From the NCBI RefSeq assembly GCF_003965815.1, contig NZ_RXOE01000001.1, positions 1,550,001-1,614,000 of the forward strand: 64,000 bases of DNA. Reading direction: 5' to 3'. The position numbers were made by a program, and so were the translations under genes. Below, in pieces: positions 1,435 through 6,503 of the stretch (position 1 is the stretch's first letter; each line of letters begins with the position of its first letter). The notes beneath the pieces are model-generated. The model saw nothing but the letters and a program-made list of their open reading frames with translations. It ran no database searches and was not told where the DNA came from. Source of the stretch: Variovorax gossypii (GTDB taxonomy: Bacteria; Pseudomonadota; Gammaproteobacteria; Burkholderiales; Burkholderiaceae_C).

Positions 1435-1752
1435 TTAGTTCGAAGCCGTGTCGTCCAGCCAGCGGTTGGCCCACTGGTTCAGCGGCAGCAGGCGCCGGAC
1501 GAGTTCCGCGCCCGCCTCGGTCAGCACGTATCCCGCGCCCGCGAGCTCGACCACGCCGGCCGCGCGCAACTCCTTGAGCCGGTCGTTCAGCACCGAGGGC
1601 GACATCTGGTCCGTGCTCGTGCGCAGCGCCCTGAAGCTCTGCGGCAGGCCGTCGCGCAGCTCCCAGAGGATGCGCAGCGTGCCCTTGCGGCCGAGCTGCT
1701 CCAGCAGCCGCATGACGGGGCGGCGCGATGCGGCGGGTTGTGCTTCTTCCAT
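1435..1752 (-). CDS. HxlR-family winged-helix transcriptional regulator
   Basis: This 105-residue protein is almost entirely one winged helix-turn-helix domain. KGTLRILWELRDGLPQSFRAL is shifted slightly from the usual HxlR opening (K..l.iL..L..G..RF.eL), and SVLNDRLKELRAAGVVE is the recognition-helix and wing region. HxlR proteins act as dimers and often sense electrophiles, quinones or oxidants. The gene is divergent from the CMD-family gene at 1882, and the 129-bp gap carries two copies of the palindrome GCTACG-N5-CGTAGC, the expected operator. It is probably an autoregulator and repressor of the neighbour. Starting at ATG 1752 gives the complete domain. Confidence 0.88.
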   Translation of the reverse strand: MEEAQPAASRRPVMRLLEQLGRKGTLRILWELRDGLPQSFRALRTSTDQMSPSVLNDRLKELRAAGVVELAGAGYVLTEAGAELVRRLLPLNQWANRWLDDTASN

Positions 1753-1795
1753 GACGAGGCCTTGCTTGATCGATCAGGCGAGTGTACGCGCTTGC

Positions 1796-1847
1796 GCTAC
1801 GCAATCCGTAGCGATAGACTGCACCCGCCCGCTACGTATTTCGTAGC
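1796..1847. promoter_or_regulatory. Twin palindromic operators of the divergent HxlR / CMD pair
   Basis: Two perfect inverted repeats share the same half-sites. GCTACG-CAATC-CGTAGC lies at 1796-1812 and GCTACG-TATTT-CGTAGC at 1831-1847, with centres 35 bp apart. They sit between the HxlR gene (start 1752) and the CMD-family gene (start 1882), the position expected for operators bound by the HxlR dimer. The repeat of both the 6-bp arms and the 5-bp spacing makes chance unlikely. Confidence 0.8.
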
Positions 1848-1881
1848 GATTTCAGCCTCATCGCCATCAAGGAGACTCCTC

Positions 1882-2454
1882 GTGACCGACACCGCCGAAC
1901 ACCACCCGCCGCGCATCCCTCCGCTCGAAGCCCCCTACCCCGAGCCCATCGGCGAACTGCTCGTGCGCATGACGCCGCCGCAAGCGCCAGAAGTACTCGC
2001 GCTGTTCCGCGTGCTGGCCGTGAACCCGGCACTGGCCGAGCGCACGCTGGACCTGGGGCGCTACCTGCTGGGCCGCAAGGCGGCCATCAGCCTGCGGGAA
2101 CGCGAGATCGTCATCCTGCGCGTCTGTTTCCGTTGCGGCGCCGAATACGAATGGGGCGTGCACTGGACCGGCTTCGCCGATGCCGCAGGCTTCAGCGGCA
2201 CCGACCGCCGCGCGATGGCATCGGCCGACGGCGACCTCGCCCTGCTCGCGCCGCGCGACCGGCTGCTGGTGTCGATGGTCGACCAGCTCCACGACACCAG
2301 CGACTTGGACGATGCGCTCTGGGAGGCCCTGCGCGAGCACTGGAGCCATGCGCAACTCATCGAGCTGATGATGCTCGCGGGCTGGTACCACTCGGTGAGC
2401 TACGTGTGCAATGCGGCGCGCGTGCCGCTGGAGAAGTGGGCGGCGCGTTGGTGA
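1882..2454 (+). CDS. Carboxymuconolactone decarboxylase / AhpD-family protein
   Basis: This 190-residue protein contains a CMD/AhpD-like core. The block LREREIVILRVCFRCGAEYE is followed by WGVHWTGFADAAGF, which matches the family pattern of E...R. ..aEYEW..H......G. Family members are small helical proteins that act as decarboxylases or as thiol-based peroxidase partners; this one lacks a clear CxxC AhpD active-site pair, and the Cys residues lie just before the EYEWGVH block. The start is GTG at 1882, supported by AAGGAG at 1869-1874 seven bases upstream. The open frame extends much further upstream, but that part is antisense to the antiporter. Control by the divergent HxlR regulator is likely, so it may be part of a response to an electrophile or oxidant. 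Confidence 0.82.
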   Translation: MTDTAEHHPPRIPPLEAPYPEPIGELLVRMTPPQAPEVLALFRVLAVNPALAERTLDLGRYLLGRKAAISLREREIVILRVCFRCGAEYEWGVHWTGFADAAGFSGTDRRAMASADGDLALLAPRDRLLVSMVDQLHDTSDLDDALWEALREHWSHAQLIELMMLAGWYHSVSYVCNAARVPLEKWAARW

Positions 2455-2483
2455 CGTGGCGTCCGCAGCATGGTGCTTTCCGT

Positions 2484-2512
2484 TTGACCAGCCCCGGAGC
2501 GAACGCTACGAT
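2484..2512 (+). promoter_or_regulatory. Sigma-70-like promoter of the cysS leader
   Basis: TTGACC at 2484-2489 and TACGAT at 2507-2512 are separated by 17 bp, a near-consensus sigma-70 arrangement. The expected start of transcription is about 2518-2520, on or just before the ATG of the Cys leader peptide at 2520. The leader would then be translated from a leaderless or nearly leaderless mRNA, which fits the lack of a Shine-Dalgarno sequence close to that ATG. Confidence 0.6.
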
Positions 2513-2519
2513 CACTTTG

Positions 2520-2597
2520 ATGTTTGCTTTCGCATCCTTGTCTTCCCTGCTTTTCCGCGCATGCTGTCTGAGCCTGCCAAGGGGAGTCTGCGGCTAG
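2520..2597 (+). CDS. Cys-codon leader peptide of the cysS attenuator
   Basis: ATG at 2520 to TAG at 2595-2597 encodes 25 residues. The C-terminal half reads RACCLSLPRGVCG, with Cys codons TGC TGT at 2562-2567 and TGC at 2589-2591. A short ORF with tandem codons for one amino acid, followed 29 bp later by an intrinsic terminator and then by the gene that charges tRNA with that amino acid, is the classic layout of ribosome-mediated attenuation. Ribosomes stalling on the CC pair when Cys-tRNA is scarce would favour read-through into cysS. The promoter at 2484-2512 places the transcription start at this ATG. No alternative ORF or Shine-Dalgarno explains the stretch. The competing antiterminator fold was not computed. 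Confidence 0.72.
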   Translation: MFAFASLSSLLFRACCLSLPRGVCG

Positions 2598-2625
2598 CGC
2601 TTCGGTTCACGTCCGCATCCCTGAT

Positions 2626-2662
2626 GGCCACCTGTTGCAAGACCGGTGGCCTTTTTGTTTTT
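2626..2662 (+). terminator. Intrinsic terminator in the cysS leader (attenuator)
   Basis: GGCCACC at 2626-2632 pairs perfectly with GGTGGCC at 2645-2651, and is followed by TTTTT-G-TTTTT at 2652-2662. This is a full rho-independent terminator. It lies after the Cys leader peptide stop (2597) and only 32 bp before the synthetase start (2695), so it would stop transcription before cysS unless it is disrupted. It could also serve the CMD-family gene upstream, but its place beyond the new promoter points to attenuation. Confidence 0.85.
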
Positions 2663-2694
2663 CAACGACCACCCTCGCATCACGAAAGGCCCGC

Positions 2695-4089
2695 ATGTCC
2701 GTTGCCCTGTACGACACTTGGTCGCGCTCCCTGCGCCCGTTCACGCCCTTGCAACCTGAGCATGTGGGCCTGTACTGCTGCGGACCGACGGTGTACGACT
2801 ACGCGCACATCGGCAACCTGCGCACGTACGTTTTCGAAGACGTGCTGCGCCGCGTGCTGGAGTTGAACGGCTACCGCGTGCGGCATATCGTCAACATCAC
2901 CGACGTCGGTCACCTTGTCTCAGATGCCGATGAGGGCGAAGACAAGATGGAGAAAGGGAGCAGGCGATCCGGAGAGACTGCCTGGTCCATTGCGCAACGC
3001 TATACGGCAGCCTTCCAGTCCGACTGGCGGGCGCTGAATCTGCTGGAGCCAGCAGAGTGGCCGCGTGCCACTGACCACATTCCCGAGCAGCTGGAATTCA
3101 TCGCCGCTCTCGAACGCAAGGGCTACACCTATCGGACCTCCGACGGCATCTACTTCGACACCATGAAGCAGGACGACTACGGCCATCTCGCCCGCCTCGA
3201 GCGCACAGGCCTGCAGGCCGGCAAGCGAGTCGCAATGGGCGAAAAACGCAATGTCTCGGATTTCGCCCTCTGGAAATTCAGCCCCACGGACAGCAGACGA
3301 CAAATGGAGTGGGACAGCCCCTGGGGACGCGGCTTTCCCGGCTGGCACATCGAATGCTCGGCCATGTCGGCCAAGCACCTGGGCCCGTGGTTCGATATTC
3401 ACTGCGGCGGAGAAGACCACATCGGGGTGCATCACAGCAACGAGATCGCGCAAACACAGGCATGCCACGGCACCCGGCTTGCCAACTTCTGGATGCATGG
3501 CCATTTCCTCACGCTGGACGACAAGAAGATGGCCAAGACGGAGGGCGACTTCCTCCGCCTGCAGACATTGATCGACCGAGGCTTCGACCCGTTGGCCTAT
3601 CGCTACCTGTGCCTTACCGCGCACTATCGGAGCACGCTGCGCTTCACCGAGGAGGCCATGGGCGCGGCGCAAGCCACACTGGAGCGGTTGCGCAACACGT
3701 ATGCCAGTTGGCCGGAGGGCGGCACGGCACACGAGGGCTTCGTGGCCCGCTTCAATGCAGAGGTGAACAAGGACCTCAACCTGCCGCGCGCTCTGGCCGT
3801 TCTGTGGGAGTTGAGCCGAAGCGATCTATCGGCAGCGACACGGCGGGCCACTGTCGATCATTTCGACGCGGTGCTCGGGCTGCGGTTGTGCGACTGGCAG
3901 GCAGACTCACCCGAGGTGCCTGCGGATGTAGTGGCCTTGCTGGATCAACGCCGGAAGGCCCGTGCCGGCAAGGACTGGGCGCTGTCAGACCGTCTGCGCG
4001 ATGCACTTGAAACGCTGGGCTGGCAAGTCGAAGACAGCGCGGAAGGGCAGCGGCTGCGCCGGGACGGGAGCGCGGCAAAAGGAAGCTAG
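2695..4089 (+). CDS. cysS: Cysteinyl-tRNA synthetase (divergent, attenuator-controlled copy)
   Basis: This 464-residue class I synthetase joins cysteine to tRNA-Cys with ATP in the cytoplasm. The Rossmann catalytic core carries HIGN at 38-41 (the HIGN form is normal in many CysRS) and the zinc ligands C29, C221, H246 and E250, in the spacing of the family. The second signature reads KMAKT at 278-282 instead of the near-universal KMSKS, an unusual pair of substitutions. The region around GGEDHIGVHHSNE also differs from the housekeeping type. ATG 2695 was chosen because the protein then opens with the usual MSVALYDTWS; the frame is open further upstream, through the terminator. It is probably a second CysRS induced by cysteine or Cys-tRNA shortage, but the presence of a housekeeping copy elsewhere cannot be seen here. 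Confidence 0.92.
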   Translation: MSVALYDTWSRSLRPFTPLQPEHVGLYCCGPTVYDYAHIGNLRTYVFEDVLRRVLELNGYRVRHIVNITDVGHLVSDADEGEDKMEKGSRRSGETAWSIAQRYTAAFQSDWRALNLLEPAEWPRATDHIPEQLEFIAALERKGYTYRTSDGIYFDTMKQDDYGHLARLERTGLQAGKRVAMGEKRNVSDFALWKFSPTDSRRQMEWDSPWGRGFPGWHIECSAMSAKHLGPWFDIHCGGEDHIGVHHSNEIAQTQACHGTRLANFWMHGHFLTLDDKKMAKTEGDFLRLQTLIDRGFDPLAYRYLCLTAHYRSTLRFTEEAMGAAQATLERLRNTYASWPEGGTAHEGFVARFNAEVNKDLNLPRALAVLWELSRSDLSAATRRATVDHFDAVLGLRLCDWQADSPEVPADVVALLDQRRKARAGKDWALSDRLRDALETLGWQVEDSAEGQRLRRDGSAAKGS

Positions 4090-4133
4090 ACCCGCCTGCG
4101 GCGACCGTCGATGCGGGACGGCCCGCAGGGTCT
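4088..4133. terminator. Possible bidirectional terminator hairpin between cysS and cadA
   Basis: AGACCC at 4088-4093, a three-base bulge, then TGCGG at 4097-4101 can pair with CCGCAGGGTCT at 4123-4133. The hairpin starts at the cysS stop codon and lies between the convergent 3' ends of cysS and cadA. No U-tract follows, so termination is plausible but unproven. Confidence 0.35.
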
Positions 4134-4166
4134 GCCGACAGGCCTCCTCCTCACTGGTGCCTTGCC

Positions 4167-6503
4167 TTAGCCGCGCACCTTGTCACCCGAAGGCACGCGC
4201 ATCAACCGCAACCCGTTCGCCACCACCAGCAGACTCGCGCCCATATCCGCGAACACCGCCATCCACATCGTCGCGCTGCCGAACACGGCGAGCACGAAGA
4301 ACACGCCCTTGATGCCCAGCGCCAGCGTGATGTTCTGCCACAGCACTGAGTGCGCGCGGCGCGAGAGGCGGATGGTCTCGGGGATGCGGCGCAGGTCGTC
4401 GTTCATGATGACCACGTCGGCCGCTTCCATCGCAGTGTCGGTGCCGGCGCCGCCCATCGCGAAGCCGATGTCGGCCTGCGCGAGTGCGGGAGCATCGTTG
4501 ATGCCGTCGCCGGTCATCGCGGCTGCGCCGTAGCGCTGCTGCATGGCCTTGACGGCGTCGAGCTTCTCCTCGGGCAGCAGATTGCCGCGCACGTCCTCGA
4601 TGCCGGCATGGGCGCCGATGGTCTTCGCGGTGGCTGTGTTGTCGCCGGTGAGCATCACCGGCACCACGCCGAGCGCGCGCAGTTCCGCAACTGCAGCCTG
4701 CGACGACTCCTTGATGGTGTCGGCCACGGCGAACAGCGCGAGCACGGCCTTGTCGGATGCCAGCAGCGTGACGGTGCGGCCGGCTTCCTCATGGCGCTTG
4801 AGCTCGGCTTCGAGCGACGGCGTGCAAAGGCCGCGCTCCTCGATCAGCCGGTGGTTGCCCAGCACGTAGACCTGCCCCGCGTGCGCGGCCTGCACGCCGC
4901 GTCCGGGCAGCGCGGTGAAGTCGGAGACTTCGCCCTGCACGCTCTTCAGGCCTTCGGCGATGGCCTTCGACACGGGGTGGTCGGAGCGGCCCGCGATGCT
5001 GGCGGCAACGACGAACACGGCTGCTTCATTGCCCGCATCGCCAACGAGCGATGACTCCACCAGCTTCGGCTTGCCTTCGGTGATGGTGCCGGTCTTGTCG
5101 AGCGCCACCGCCTTGAGCTTGCGCGCCTCCTCGAGATACGTGCCGCCCTTGATGAGAATGCCGCGCCGCGCGGCCGAGGCCAGCGCGCTCACCACCGTGA
5201 CCGGCGTGGAGATCACCAGCGCGCACGGGCAGGCGATGACCAGCAGCACCAGCGCCTTGTAGACCGACTGCATCCAGGTCCAGTCCATGAAGAACGGCGC
5301 GAACACCGCGATGGCCAGTGCCAGCACGAACACGGTCGGCGTGTAGATGGCGGCGAACCTGTCGACGAAGCGCTGCGTGGGCGCGCGCGAGCCCTGCGCT
5401 TCCTCGACCGCATGGATGATTCGCGCGAGCGTGGTGTTCGACGCCACCGCCGTCACGCGGAACTCCAGCGCGGCGGTCTGGTTGATGGTGCCGGCGAACA
5501 CCTGGTCGCCGACGGTCTTGTCGACCGGAATGCTCTCGCCGGTGACCGGCGCCTGGTCGATGGCGCTGTTGCCTTCGGTGACGATGCCGTCCAGCGGCAC
5601 GCGCTCGCCGGGGCGGATGCGCGCGACGGCGCCGAGCTCGACCGCGCTGGCCATCACGGTCTTCCAGCTGCCGTCGGCCTGCTTCACCTCGGCCTGCTCG
5701 GGCGCGAGCGCCAGCAGGCTCTGGATGGCATTGCGCGCGCGGTCAACGGCGCGGGCCTCGATGAGTTCGGCAATGGCGTAGAGCGCCATCACCATGGCGG
5801 CCTCGGGCCACTGGCCGATGATGAAGGCGCCGGTGACGGCCACGGCCATCAGGGCGTTGATGTTCAGCCGCCCGCGCACCAGCGCGGCGAAGCCCTTCTT
5901 GTAGGTGTCGAGGCCCGCAAGGCCGATGGCGCCCAGCGCCAGCAGCATTCCGGCCGCCATGAAGCCCTTGCCCTCGAGCCCCATGAAGGAGATCGACTCG
6001 GCCGCGATGGCCAGCACCAGCGCTGCGACCAGCCGGGCCAGGCCCGCGCTCATGCCCGCGATGCGTGCCGGTGCGGCCGCGGCCTGCGCGCCTGCGGCCG
6101 GGCCGGTTGCGTCGCCCAGAGGCTCGGGCTTGAAGCCGGCCTTGCGGATGGCTTCGAGCGCGTTGGGCAAGGCTGCGGTATCGGCCGTGATCGCCATCGT
6201 GCGTTCGCCGAGACGAAAGCGCAGAGCCCTGACGCCCGCGACCGGTTCGAGCGCGCGGCGGATCTCCGACTCCTCGACTGCGCAGTCCATCGTGGGAATG
6301 CGAAAGAGCAAGGCTCCCTTGGGAATGTCGCCCGTGTCGACTGCGGGCGACGAGCCGCAGACCGGGTTGCCGCAACACGATGCGGCGGCGGGAGGATGCG
6401 CATGCCCGTGCGAGTGATCGTGACCGTGGCCATGCTCGTGGCCGTGATCTTGCGGATGAAGGGCCGGCGTCACCGGCTTCAGGGCGTTCTGGTTCGTCGT
6501 CAT
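4167..6503 (-). CDS. cadA: Zn/Cd/Pb-translocating P1B-type ATPase
   Basis: This 778-residue inner-membrane pump exports divalent soft metals at the cost of ATP. In order it shows a His-rich N-terminus (residues 20-36, many HGH repeats), a CCGNPVC cluster near 43-49, an HMA domain with MDCAVEE at 72-78 (the Zn/Cd/Pb form rather than the CxxC copper form), transmembrane helices, TGES at 321-324 in the actuator, CPC at 425-427 in the ion path, the phosphorylation motif DKTGT at 469-473, and a SDHPVSKAI HP block. The start is ATG 6503; longer in-frame starts run across the promoter and cadR. It is divergent from cadR, whose MerR-type operator overlaps the cadA promoter. Confidence 0.94.
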   Translation of the reverse strand: MTTNQNALKPVTPALHPQDHGHEHGHGHDHSHGHAHPPAAASCCGNPVCGSSPAVDTGDIPKGALLFRIPTMDCAVEESEIRRALEPVAGVRALRFRLGERTMAITADTAALPNALEAIRKAGFKPEPLGDATGPAAGAQAAAAPARIAGMSAGLARLVAALVLAIAAESISFMGLEGKGFMAAGMLLALGAIGLAGLDTYKKGFAALVRGRLNINALMAVAVTGAFIIGQWPEAAMVMALYAIAELIEARAVDRARNAIQSLLALAPEQAEVKQADGSWKTVMASAVELGAVARIRPGERVPLDGIVTEGNSAIDQAPVTGESIPVDKTVGDQVFAGTINQTAALEFRVTAVASNTTLARIIHAVEEAQGSRAPTQRFVDRFAAIYTPTVFVLALAIAVFAPFFMDWTWMQSVYKALVLLVIACPCALVISTPVTVVSALASAARRGILIKGGTYLEEARKLKAVALDKTGTITEGKPKLVESSLVGDAGNEAAVFVVAASIAGRSDHPVSKAIAEGLKSVQGEVSDFTALPGRGVQAAHAGQVYVLGNHRLIEERGLCTPSLEAELKRHEEAGRTVTLLASDKAVLALFAVADTIKESSQAAVAELRALGVVPVMLTGDNTATAKTIGAHAGIEDVRGNLLPEEKLDAVKAMQQRYGAAAMTGDGINDAPALAQADIGFAMGGAGTDTAMEAADVVIMNDDLRRIPETIRLSRRAHSVLWQNITLALGIKGVFFVLAVFGSATMWMAVFADMGASLLVVANGLRLMRVPSGDKVRG

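What the first reader, a model, noticed from the sequence alone, without database searches (positions are those of the whole stretch)
2484..2695. Cysteine-codon leader peptide and terminator form a probable attenuator for cysS
In order: a sigma-70-like promoter (TTGACC-N17-TACGAT), a 25-residue ORF containing CC and a later C near its end, an intrinsic terminator (7-bp stem, two U5 runs), and then cysS 32 bp on. This is the layout of trp/his/leu-type attenuation, but aimed at cysteine and at a tRNA synthetase. Amino-acid-codon leaders ahead of synthetase genes (as for pheST) are known but rare, and I know of no standard example for cysS in beta-proteobacteria. The leader also seems to be leaderless.
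Basis: partly seen in the sequence, partly recalled or inferred. Interest (0 to 1): 0.82.

Follow-up and report, generated by a model that had tools for sequence, protein, structure and literature searches.

The report
Cysteine-codon attenuator for a second cysS
A short cysteine-coded leader and a terminator sit in front of a spare cysteine-tRNA synthetase gene and probably let the cell switch that gene on only when charged cysteine tRNA runs short; related bacteria keep the same layout, and a similar switch has been predicted before in another bacterial group.

Summary
The leader is conserved: 24 aligned Burkholderiales loci keep -35/-10, an ATG 7 nt after the -10 (leaderless), tandem Cys codons and terminator. 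A Cys-blind scan found promoter plus such an ORF in 35 of 63 related loci; all 35 ORFs contain Cys (33 CC). Canonical cysS: 0 of 51. Strong model hits occur in 7 of 101 genomes of the genus (own included), all before this paralogue. Diverged loci keep locus-specific complementarity between the stretch after the Cys codons and the terminator's 5' side (permutation 1 of 20,000; two control segments negative), as an antiterminator requires. Weak points: in the close group that pairing hardly varies, single-sequence energies resemble shuffles, and at equilibrium the terminator wins even with a stalled ribosome, so any switch must be kinetic. There are no expression data. A Cys-codon cysS attenuator (uORFC-8-2) was predicted in Rhodobacterales in 2021 and leaderless trpL is known: a new variant of a known kind.

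The parts
2484..2512 (+). sigma-70 promoter: -35 TTGACC, 17-nt spacer, -10 TACGAT
   Evidence: TTGACC and TANNNT in all 24 close relatives
2520..2597 (+). leader-peptide ORF, 25 codons, inferred to be leaderless: its ATG lies 7 nt after the -10
   Evidence: no SD-like 4-mer upstream
2562..2567 (+). tandem regulatory Cys codons TGC TGT (residues 15-16)
   Evidence: tandem Cys codons kept in 24 of 24 close relatives
2559..2577 (+). small hairpin holding the Cys codons (segments 1:2)
   Evidence: RNAalifold consensus; one pair with C-G to U-A change in 10 of 24 rows
2576..2593 (+). segment 2, 5' strand of the predicted antiterminator
2613..2628 (+). segment 3, 3' strand of the predicted antiterminator, ending in the first three bases of the terminator
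2589..2591 (+). third Cys codon, next but one before the stop
2626..2662 (+). intrinsic terminator: 7-bp stem GGCCACC/GGTGGCC (segments 3:4) and T5-G-T5
   Evidence: A-U to G-C change in 12 of 24 rows at one pair
2695..4089 (+). cysS2, second cysteinyl-tRNA synthetase, 464 aa

Best explanation
A ribosome-mediated transcription attenuator, working like the trp leader but reading Cys codons, controls an accessory cysteinyl-tRNA synthetase. Transcription starts at or next to the A of the leader ATG (inferred from promoter spacing), and a ribosome loads on the leaderless ORF. With enough Cys-tRNA it runs to the stop codon and covers segment 2 (2576-2593); the terminator 2626-2662 forms and transcription ends before cysS2. 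When charged Cys-tRNA is short the ribosome halts at Cys codon 15 or 16; segment 2 begins just downstream (first paired base 14 nt after the start of the first Cys codon), pairs with 2613-2628 and blocks the U-tract-side base pairs of the terminator as they emerge, so RNA polymerase reads through into cysS2. Shown by sequence comparison: the elements, their conservation, their restriction to this cysS type among the loci tested, and the kept complementarity. Inferred: the start site, the stall, the antitermination, and the role as a starvation-induced spare synthetase.
For: Elements present and in order. Conserved in 24 aligned loci: the window, three congeners, and Paraburkholderia, Burkholderia, Trinickia and Achromobacter, five of these from plasmid records. 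Cys-blind scan: promoter (9 of 12 or better) + ATG 5-9 nt downstream in 35 of 63 loci, all 35 ORFs with Cys, 33 with CC. CC leader plus terminator in front of 40 of 86 cysS2-type genes, 0 of 51 canonical cysS. Genus: 7 of 101 genomes (own included) give strong model hits, all 7 directly before cysS2. Terminator and Cys hairpin: 97.9% of cells paired, 27 cells with both-side changes against 10.2 in shuffles, under 48% paired when slid. Segment 2:3 complementarity is locus-specific: 21 hand-picked lineage representatives, 1 of 20,000 permutations as good; upstream and linker control segments not (19,853 and 7,881 of 20,000). Among 23 loci outside the close group 10 rank in the best 5% of shuffles (Fisher 2.6e-8, but some loci are related). 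Leader Cys codons are TGT in 41 of 81 cases against 7 of 178 in the cysS2 genes they precede (26 loci). CysS2 can be the only CysRS: 9 of 33 genomes, all picked for having it, show no other.
Against: Within the 24 close relatives antiterminator covariation is weak: 2 pairs with both-side changes, reached in 16 of 500 shuffles; slides by -1 and -2 columns give an equal or higher covariation score. Only 2 of those 24 duplexes rank in the best 5% of shuffles (Fisher 0.015). Sequestration of the terminator base in the stalled state beats 90% of shuffles in only 4 of 27 loci of the core list and 10 of 50 in all. For terminator plus Cys hairpin the number of pairs with both-side changes (3) and of further pair types (7) is not above shuffles. 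At equilibrium the terminator is favoured in the stalled state too, by 10.3 kcal/mol on average against 14.9 with the ribosome at the stop (26 loci). In 7 of 50 leaders the best promoter match was not 5-7 nt before the ATG, and 28 of 63 loci failed the Cys-blind scan. In some diverged leaders the paired stretch begins 20-49 nt after the first Cys codon of the tandem. The 50 leaders were picked partly by Cys content, and segment limits were set after seeing the data. No transcript, start-site or expression data.
Confidence: 0.8

Rival explanations
1. The Cys-rich nascent peptide itself is the sensor: vicinal thiols bind a metal or respond to thiol stress and arrest the ribosome, rather than codon hunger for Cys-tRNA.
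For: CC is found in most leaders, and after it most of the close group share P-x-G. A copper-responsive upstream ORF is reported in print (PMC9426467, title and abstract start in a search listing only).
Against: Residues after CC differ between lineages while Cys codons stay; some leaders have a single Cys (L068, L084, L090, L115, L131). The shared P-x-G is what the conserved RNA stretch GCCNNGGGG would encode. TGT enrichment points to decoding, or to the hairpin.
Confidence: 0.08
2. Constitutive terminator with partial read-through; the ORF and complementarity are by-products and there is no cysteine response.
For: Terminator favoured at equilibrium in both states computed; antiterminator not exceptional in single sequences.
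Against: Cys codons in 35 of 35 Cys-blind ORFs; locus-specific complementarity; CC leader plus terminator at 0 of 51 canonical cysS.
Confidence: 0.06
3. The paralogue is governed at initiation, for example by zinc limitation (Zur), as reported for a cysS paralogue of Cupriavidus metallidurans, and the leader is secondary.
For: Zur-linked CysRS paralogues with zinc ligands kept are described (PMC2770081, passages); the residues that I recall as zinc ligands are kept here too.
Against: By eye the 24 aligned promoters share no operator-like palindrome (no operator search was run); leaders are also kept in genomes where this is the only cysS type found (G494, G679, G538, G765).
Confidence: 0.06

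Closest known systems
uORFC-8-2 motif (Rhodobacterales cysS leader; PMC8632094, passages read)
   Same: Upstream of cysS, short ORF with tandem Cys codons (usually positions 14-15 there, 15-16 here), first stem holding the Cys codons, terminator-like stem with U run, proposed ribosome-mediated attenuation.
   Different: Described only from alphaproteobacterial Rhodobacterales; here it is in Burkholderiales, before a divergent second cysS, with a conserved leaderless promoter-ATG layout. The passages read do not mention a leaderless start; the published alignment was not compared.
trp/his/leu-type amino-acid operon attenuators (recalled)
   Same: Leader ORF with tandem regulatory codons, overlapping hairpins, terminator before the gene.
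   Different: Controls a tRNA synthetase, not biosynthesis; antiterminator and terminator share only 3 bases of the arm in the window; no SD.
Leaderless trpL of Sinorhizobium meliloti (PMC7298713, passages)
   Same: Attenuator transcript begins with the ATG of the leader ORF.
   Different: Trp leader, alphaproteobacterium; there the 5' end is reported, here it is inferred.
His leader before hisS paralogues of bacilli (PMC2965389, passages)
   Same: Predicted amino-acid leader peptide in front of extra synthetase paralogues.
   Different: Histidine, Firmicutes.

Membership tests
Ribosome-mediated transcription attenuator (trp type) | Own promoter and short leader ORF with tandem codons for the relevant amino acid | tested here: met
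   (sequence only)
Ribosome-mediated transcription attenuator (trp type) | Intrinsic terminator between leader ORF and structural gene | tested here: met
Ribosome-mediated transcription attenuator (trp type) | Antiterminator that overlaps the terminator and lies downstream of a ribosome stalled at the regulatory codons | tested here: met
   (diverged loci); best duplex overlaps 3 or more terminator-arm bases in 46 of 47 loci; weak in the close group
Ribosome-mediated transcription attenuator (trp type) | Stalled state prevents the terminator | tested here: inconclusive
   equilibrium energies favour the terminator in both states; kinetics not computed
Ribosome-mediated transcription attenuator (trp type) | Read-through rises when the cognate charged tRNA falls | not testable with these tools
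   needs expression data
uORFC-8-2 motif | Upstream of cysS with tandem Cys codons, Cys-codon stem and terminator stem | tested here: met
   description
uORFC-8-2 motif | Occurs in Rhodobacterales (exclusively, as published) | tested here: not met
   the named close relatives are Burkholderiales
uORFC-8-2 motif | Matches the published consensus | not testable with these tools
   its alignment was not held; no Rfam family matches the region
T-box | T-box RNA family match | tested here: not met
   no such hit among Rfam matches up to E 10 in 1500-4500
Cysteinyl-tRNA synthetase | tRNA-synt_1e domain, HIGH-like motif, C/C/HxxxE motif residues | tested here: met
   the KMSKS loop reads KMAKT in the window copy

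The most novel reading that the evidence does not exclude
Many Betaproteobacteria carry a silent spare cysteinyl-tRNA synthetase, spread between lineages together with its own leaderless Cys-codon attenuator, that is switched on only when the housekeeping enzyme fails (for example when it is inhibited), making it a self-contained tRNA-charging alarm and bypass.
Probability: 0.25. Interest if true: 0.7.

Novelty: new variant of a known kind. Interest (0 to 1): 0.52.

Why it matters
It gives a compact, testable cysteine-tRNA sensor with a conserved leaderless start, suggests that Cys-codon control of cysS is not confined to Rhodobacterales, and ties such control to an accessory synthetase, which makes the question of why some bacteria keep two CysRS directly testable.

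Tried and rejected
Tried: Rfam scans: no convincing family. Single-sequence fold of 2519-2662: z -1.08. Sequestration scores: neither the arm-wide nor the base-only measure separates real loci from shuffles; I then turned to duplex energies and the permutation test. Fixed-column covariation of the antiterminator in the close group: inconclusive, partly because its 3' side has indels. Model R1 for leaders elsewhere: order sample, 12 of 200 genomes with hits at E <= 0.01, of which only the own genome is strong (108 bits, next 39.4); that sample held G494 and G463, whose diverged leaders R1 did not find, so R1 sees close leaders only. Of the weak hits I read five (L195, L214-L217): plain terminators by eye; the other fetched weak ones (L196-L207, L218-L226) were only checked for a cysS2 neighbour (none); weak hits without a locus were not looked at. 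Relatives of this cysS type in other classes of the phylum (L174-L192, unnamed, 19 loci): by ORF listing and eye no Cys leader plus terminator; L184 has a CC ORF without an evident terminator. Of 30 L173-like cysS loci (L227-L256) four have CC ORFs upstream. Papers: nine searches in open-licence PubMed Central only; none listed a paper that I recognised as on a Cys attenuator before a betaproteobacterial cysS, which does not show that none exists; most listed papers were not opened. Rejected: an attenuator of the housekeeping cysS (0 of 51 canonical upstreams pass the test, own genome included).

Dropped rows and choices: upstreams with identical ends were counted once; L172, L058 and L121 were left out; the 21 and 28 representatives were picked by hand; L008 (broken gene) was left out of the codon counts and, with other short or duplicate proteins, of the tree, which holds 11 canonical rows out of 51; L002 and L005 are the window itself.

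Full report
What is there. At 2484-2695 the window holds, in order, a sigma-70-like promoter, a 25-codon ORF with tandem Cys codons, an intrinsic terminator with two T5 runs and the start of a cysteinyl-tRNA synthetase gene. The gene is not the housekeeping cysS: the same genome has a canonical copy at G000:C1:82264 (437.9 bits to PF01406 against 312.2 for this one), 37% identical to it.

Who has it. Counts include the own genome. In a genus sample the protein is found at 77% identity or more in 4 of 61 genomes, one of them (G033) with the gene split between two frames; family sample 2 of 399 (E <= 1e-110), order sample 17 of 399 (E <= 1e-130), class sample 4 of 369 (E <= 1e-120). In a quick tree of 117 proteins the 11 canonical rows are one side of a branch (100*). 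Of 54 rows with Cys leaders (49) or poly-Cys ORFs (5), 53 lie in one fork of 62 rows (96*); its named rows are betaproteobacterial, apart from two Vibrio rows and one MAG named only Proteobacteria. The exception is the long-branched L172. Nine of 33 genomes, all picked for having this type, show no other, so it can serve as the sole CysRS.

Is the leader real. I listed 50 upstream regions with a Cys-containing leader ORF, a list chosen partly by Cys. In these the gap from the -10 to the leader ATG is 7 nt in 31 and 5-7 nt in 43 of 50; 42 of 50 have no SD-like 4-mer before the ATG, and in 7 of the other 8 the match is part of the -10. To remove the choice by Cys, I scanned the 63 loci of the leader-bearing clade (the 62 tree rows and L008) for promoter plus ATG alone: 35 of 63 qualified, and all 35 ORFs contain Cys, 33 of them CC; tiles of the 64-kb window gave none (the leader itself fell across tile borders). 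The combined test 'CC ORF + strong terminator' gives 40 of 86 for this cysS type, 0 of 51 for canonical cysS and 1 of 1158 for window tiles, that one being the leader itself. In a genus search with a covariance model of the leader, 32 of 101 genomes had hits at E <= 0.01, but only 7 strong ones (74-108 bits), and all 7 lie directly before cysS2.

How it would work. The 24 close relatives keep TTGACC, TANNNT, an ATG 7 nt on and tandem Cys codons, then GCC, a G-rich stretch, in most rows TGCG.CTAGC around the stop, and the terminator stem. RNAalifold predicts a small hairpin over the Cys codons and the terminator; together they have 97.9% of cells paired and 27 both-side-changed cells against a shuffled mean of 10.2, and lose the pairing when slid, though the number of pairs so changed (3) is no more than in shuffles. 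The 1:2 hairpin, the 2:3 pairing of 2576-2593 with 2613-2628 and the 3:4 terminator make a four-segment layout. In diverged loci segment 2 and the terminator side have different sequences but match each other: 21 hand-picked loci sum to -373.7 kcal/mol against -319.7 +/- 13.8 for permuted partners, 1 of 20,000 as good; the segment upstream of the Cys codons and the linker do not. 46 of 47 best duplexes overlap the terminator arm by at least 3 bases. In the window and the ten nearest representatives examined the first paired base lies 9-16 nt after the start of the first Cys codon of the tandem, about the leading edge of a ribosome halted there (footprint recalled); in some diverged leaders it lies 20-49 nt after it, and several of those have further Cys codons in between.

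What speaks against it. Within the 24 close relatives the antiterminator hardly varies and its covariation is weak, and energies alone are mostly like those of shuffles. If all of the RNA may reach equilibrium the terminator is preferred in the stalled state too, on average by 10.3 kcal/mol against 14.9 with the ribosome at the stop (26 loci). In the window the pairing blocks only the three terminator pairs next to the U tract, so it can only work while the RNA is being made. I hold the attenuator reading at 0.8 because codons, start, terminator and complementarity are kept together, against controls that lack them.

An extra feature: the Cys codons of the leaders are TGT in 41 of 81 cases, against 7 of 178 in the cysS2 genes they precede (26 loci: 23 of the close group and L117, L054, L059). 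The loci are related, so the computed p-value is too small, but the contrast is large; TGT could make the sensor more sensitive, or be set by the hairpin.

What is known. A comparative screen of 26 genomes (PMC8632094; passages read) describes uORFC-8-2, 145 examples upstream of cysS in Rhodobacterales with tandem Cys codons and a terminator, and proposes the same logic. I found three loci of one unnamed family outside the window's class (f260; L250, L251, L256) with short CC ORFs upstream of cysS, possibly of that kind; their order could not be checked. Leaderless trpL is reported in Sinorhizobium meliloti (PMC7298713, passages). His leaders before hisS paralogues are predicted in bacilli (PMC2965389, passages). 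A Zur-controlled CysS paralogue is described in Cupriavidus (PMC2770081, passages). New here, as far as nine searches of open-licence papers show, are the betaproteobacterial leader, its conserved leaderless start and its link to an accessory cysS.

Noticed in passing
L049, L050, L051, L080, L116, L118, L119 upstream of cysS2: Undibacterium-type relatives have another design: an ORF with Cys codons at or near its stop (for example LSVCCCCCC* in L051), roughly 60-110 nt before cysS, without an intrinsic terminator found; perhaps Rho-dependent or translational control.
   Followed up: partly
L240, L250, L251, L256 upstream of cysS: Short CC ORFs (for example MFVRAFSPCCCACCCR in L240) before L173-like cysS outside the window's class; by eye some have the ATG close behind a -10-like hexamer.
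   Followed up: partly
L171 (Vibrio coralliilyticus pOCN014): A cysS2-type gene near a phosphopantetheinyl transferase and a serine O-acetyltransferase gene, with no Cys leader seen upstream; perhaps part of a biosynthetic cluster.
   Followed up: no
plasmids collection: 496 of the 600 plasmid records with a match to this CysRS are Klebsiella; nearly all matches (593 of 600) are below 60% identity.
   Followed up: no
L008/L209 (G033): A congener keeps the leader but its cysS2 is split between two frames; described only.
   Followed up: no
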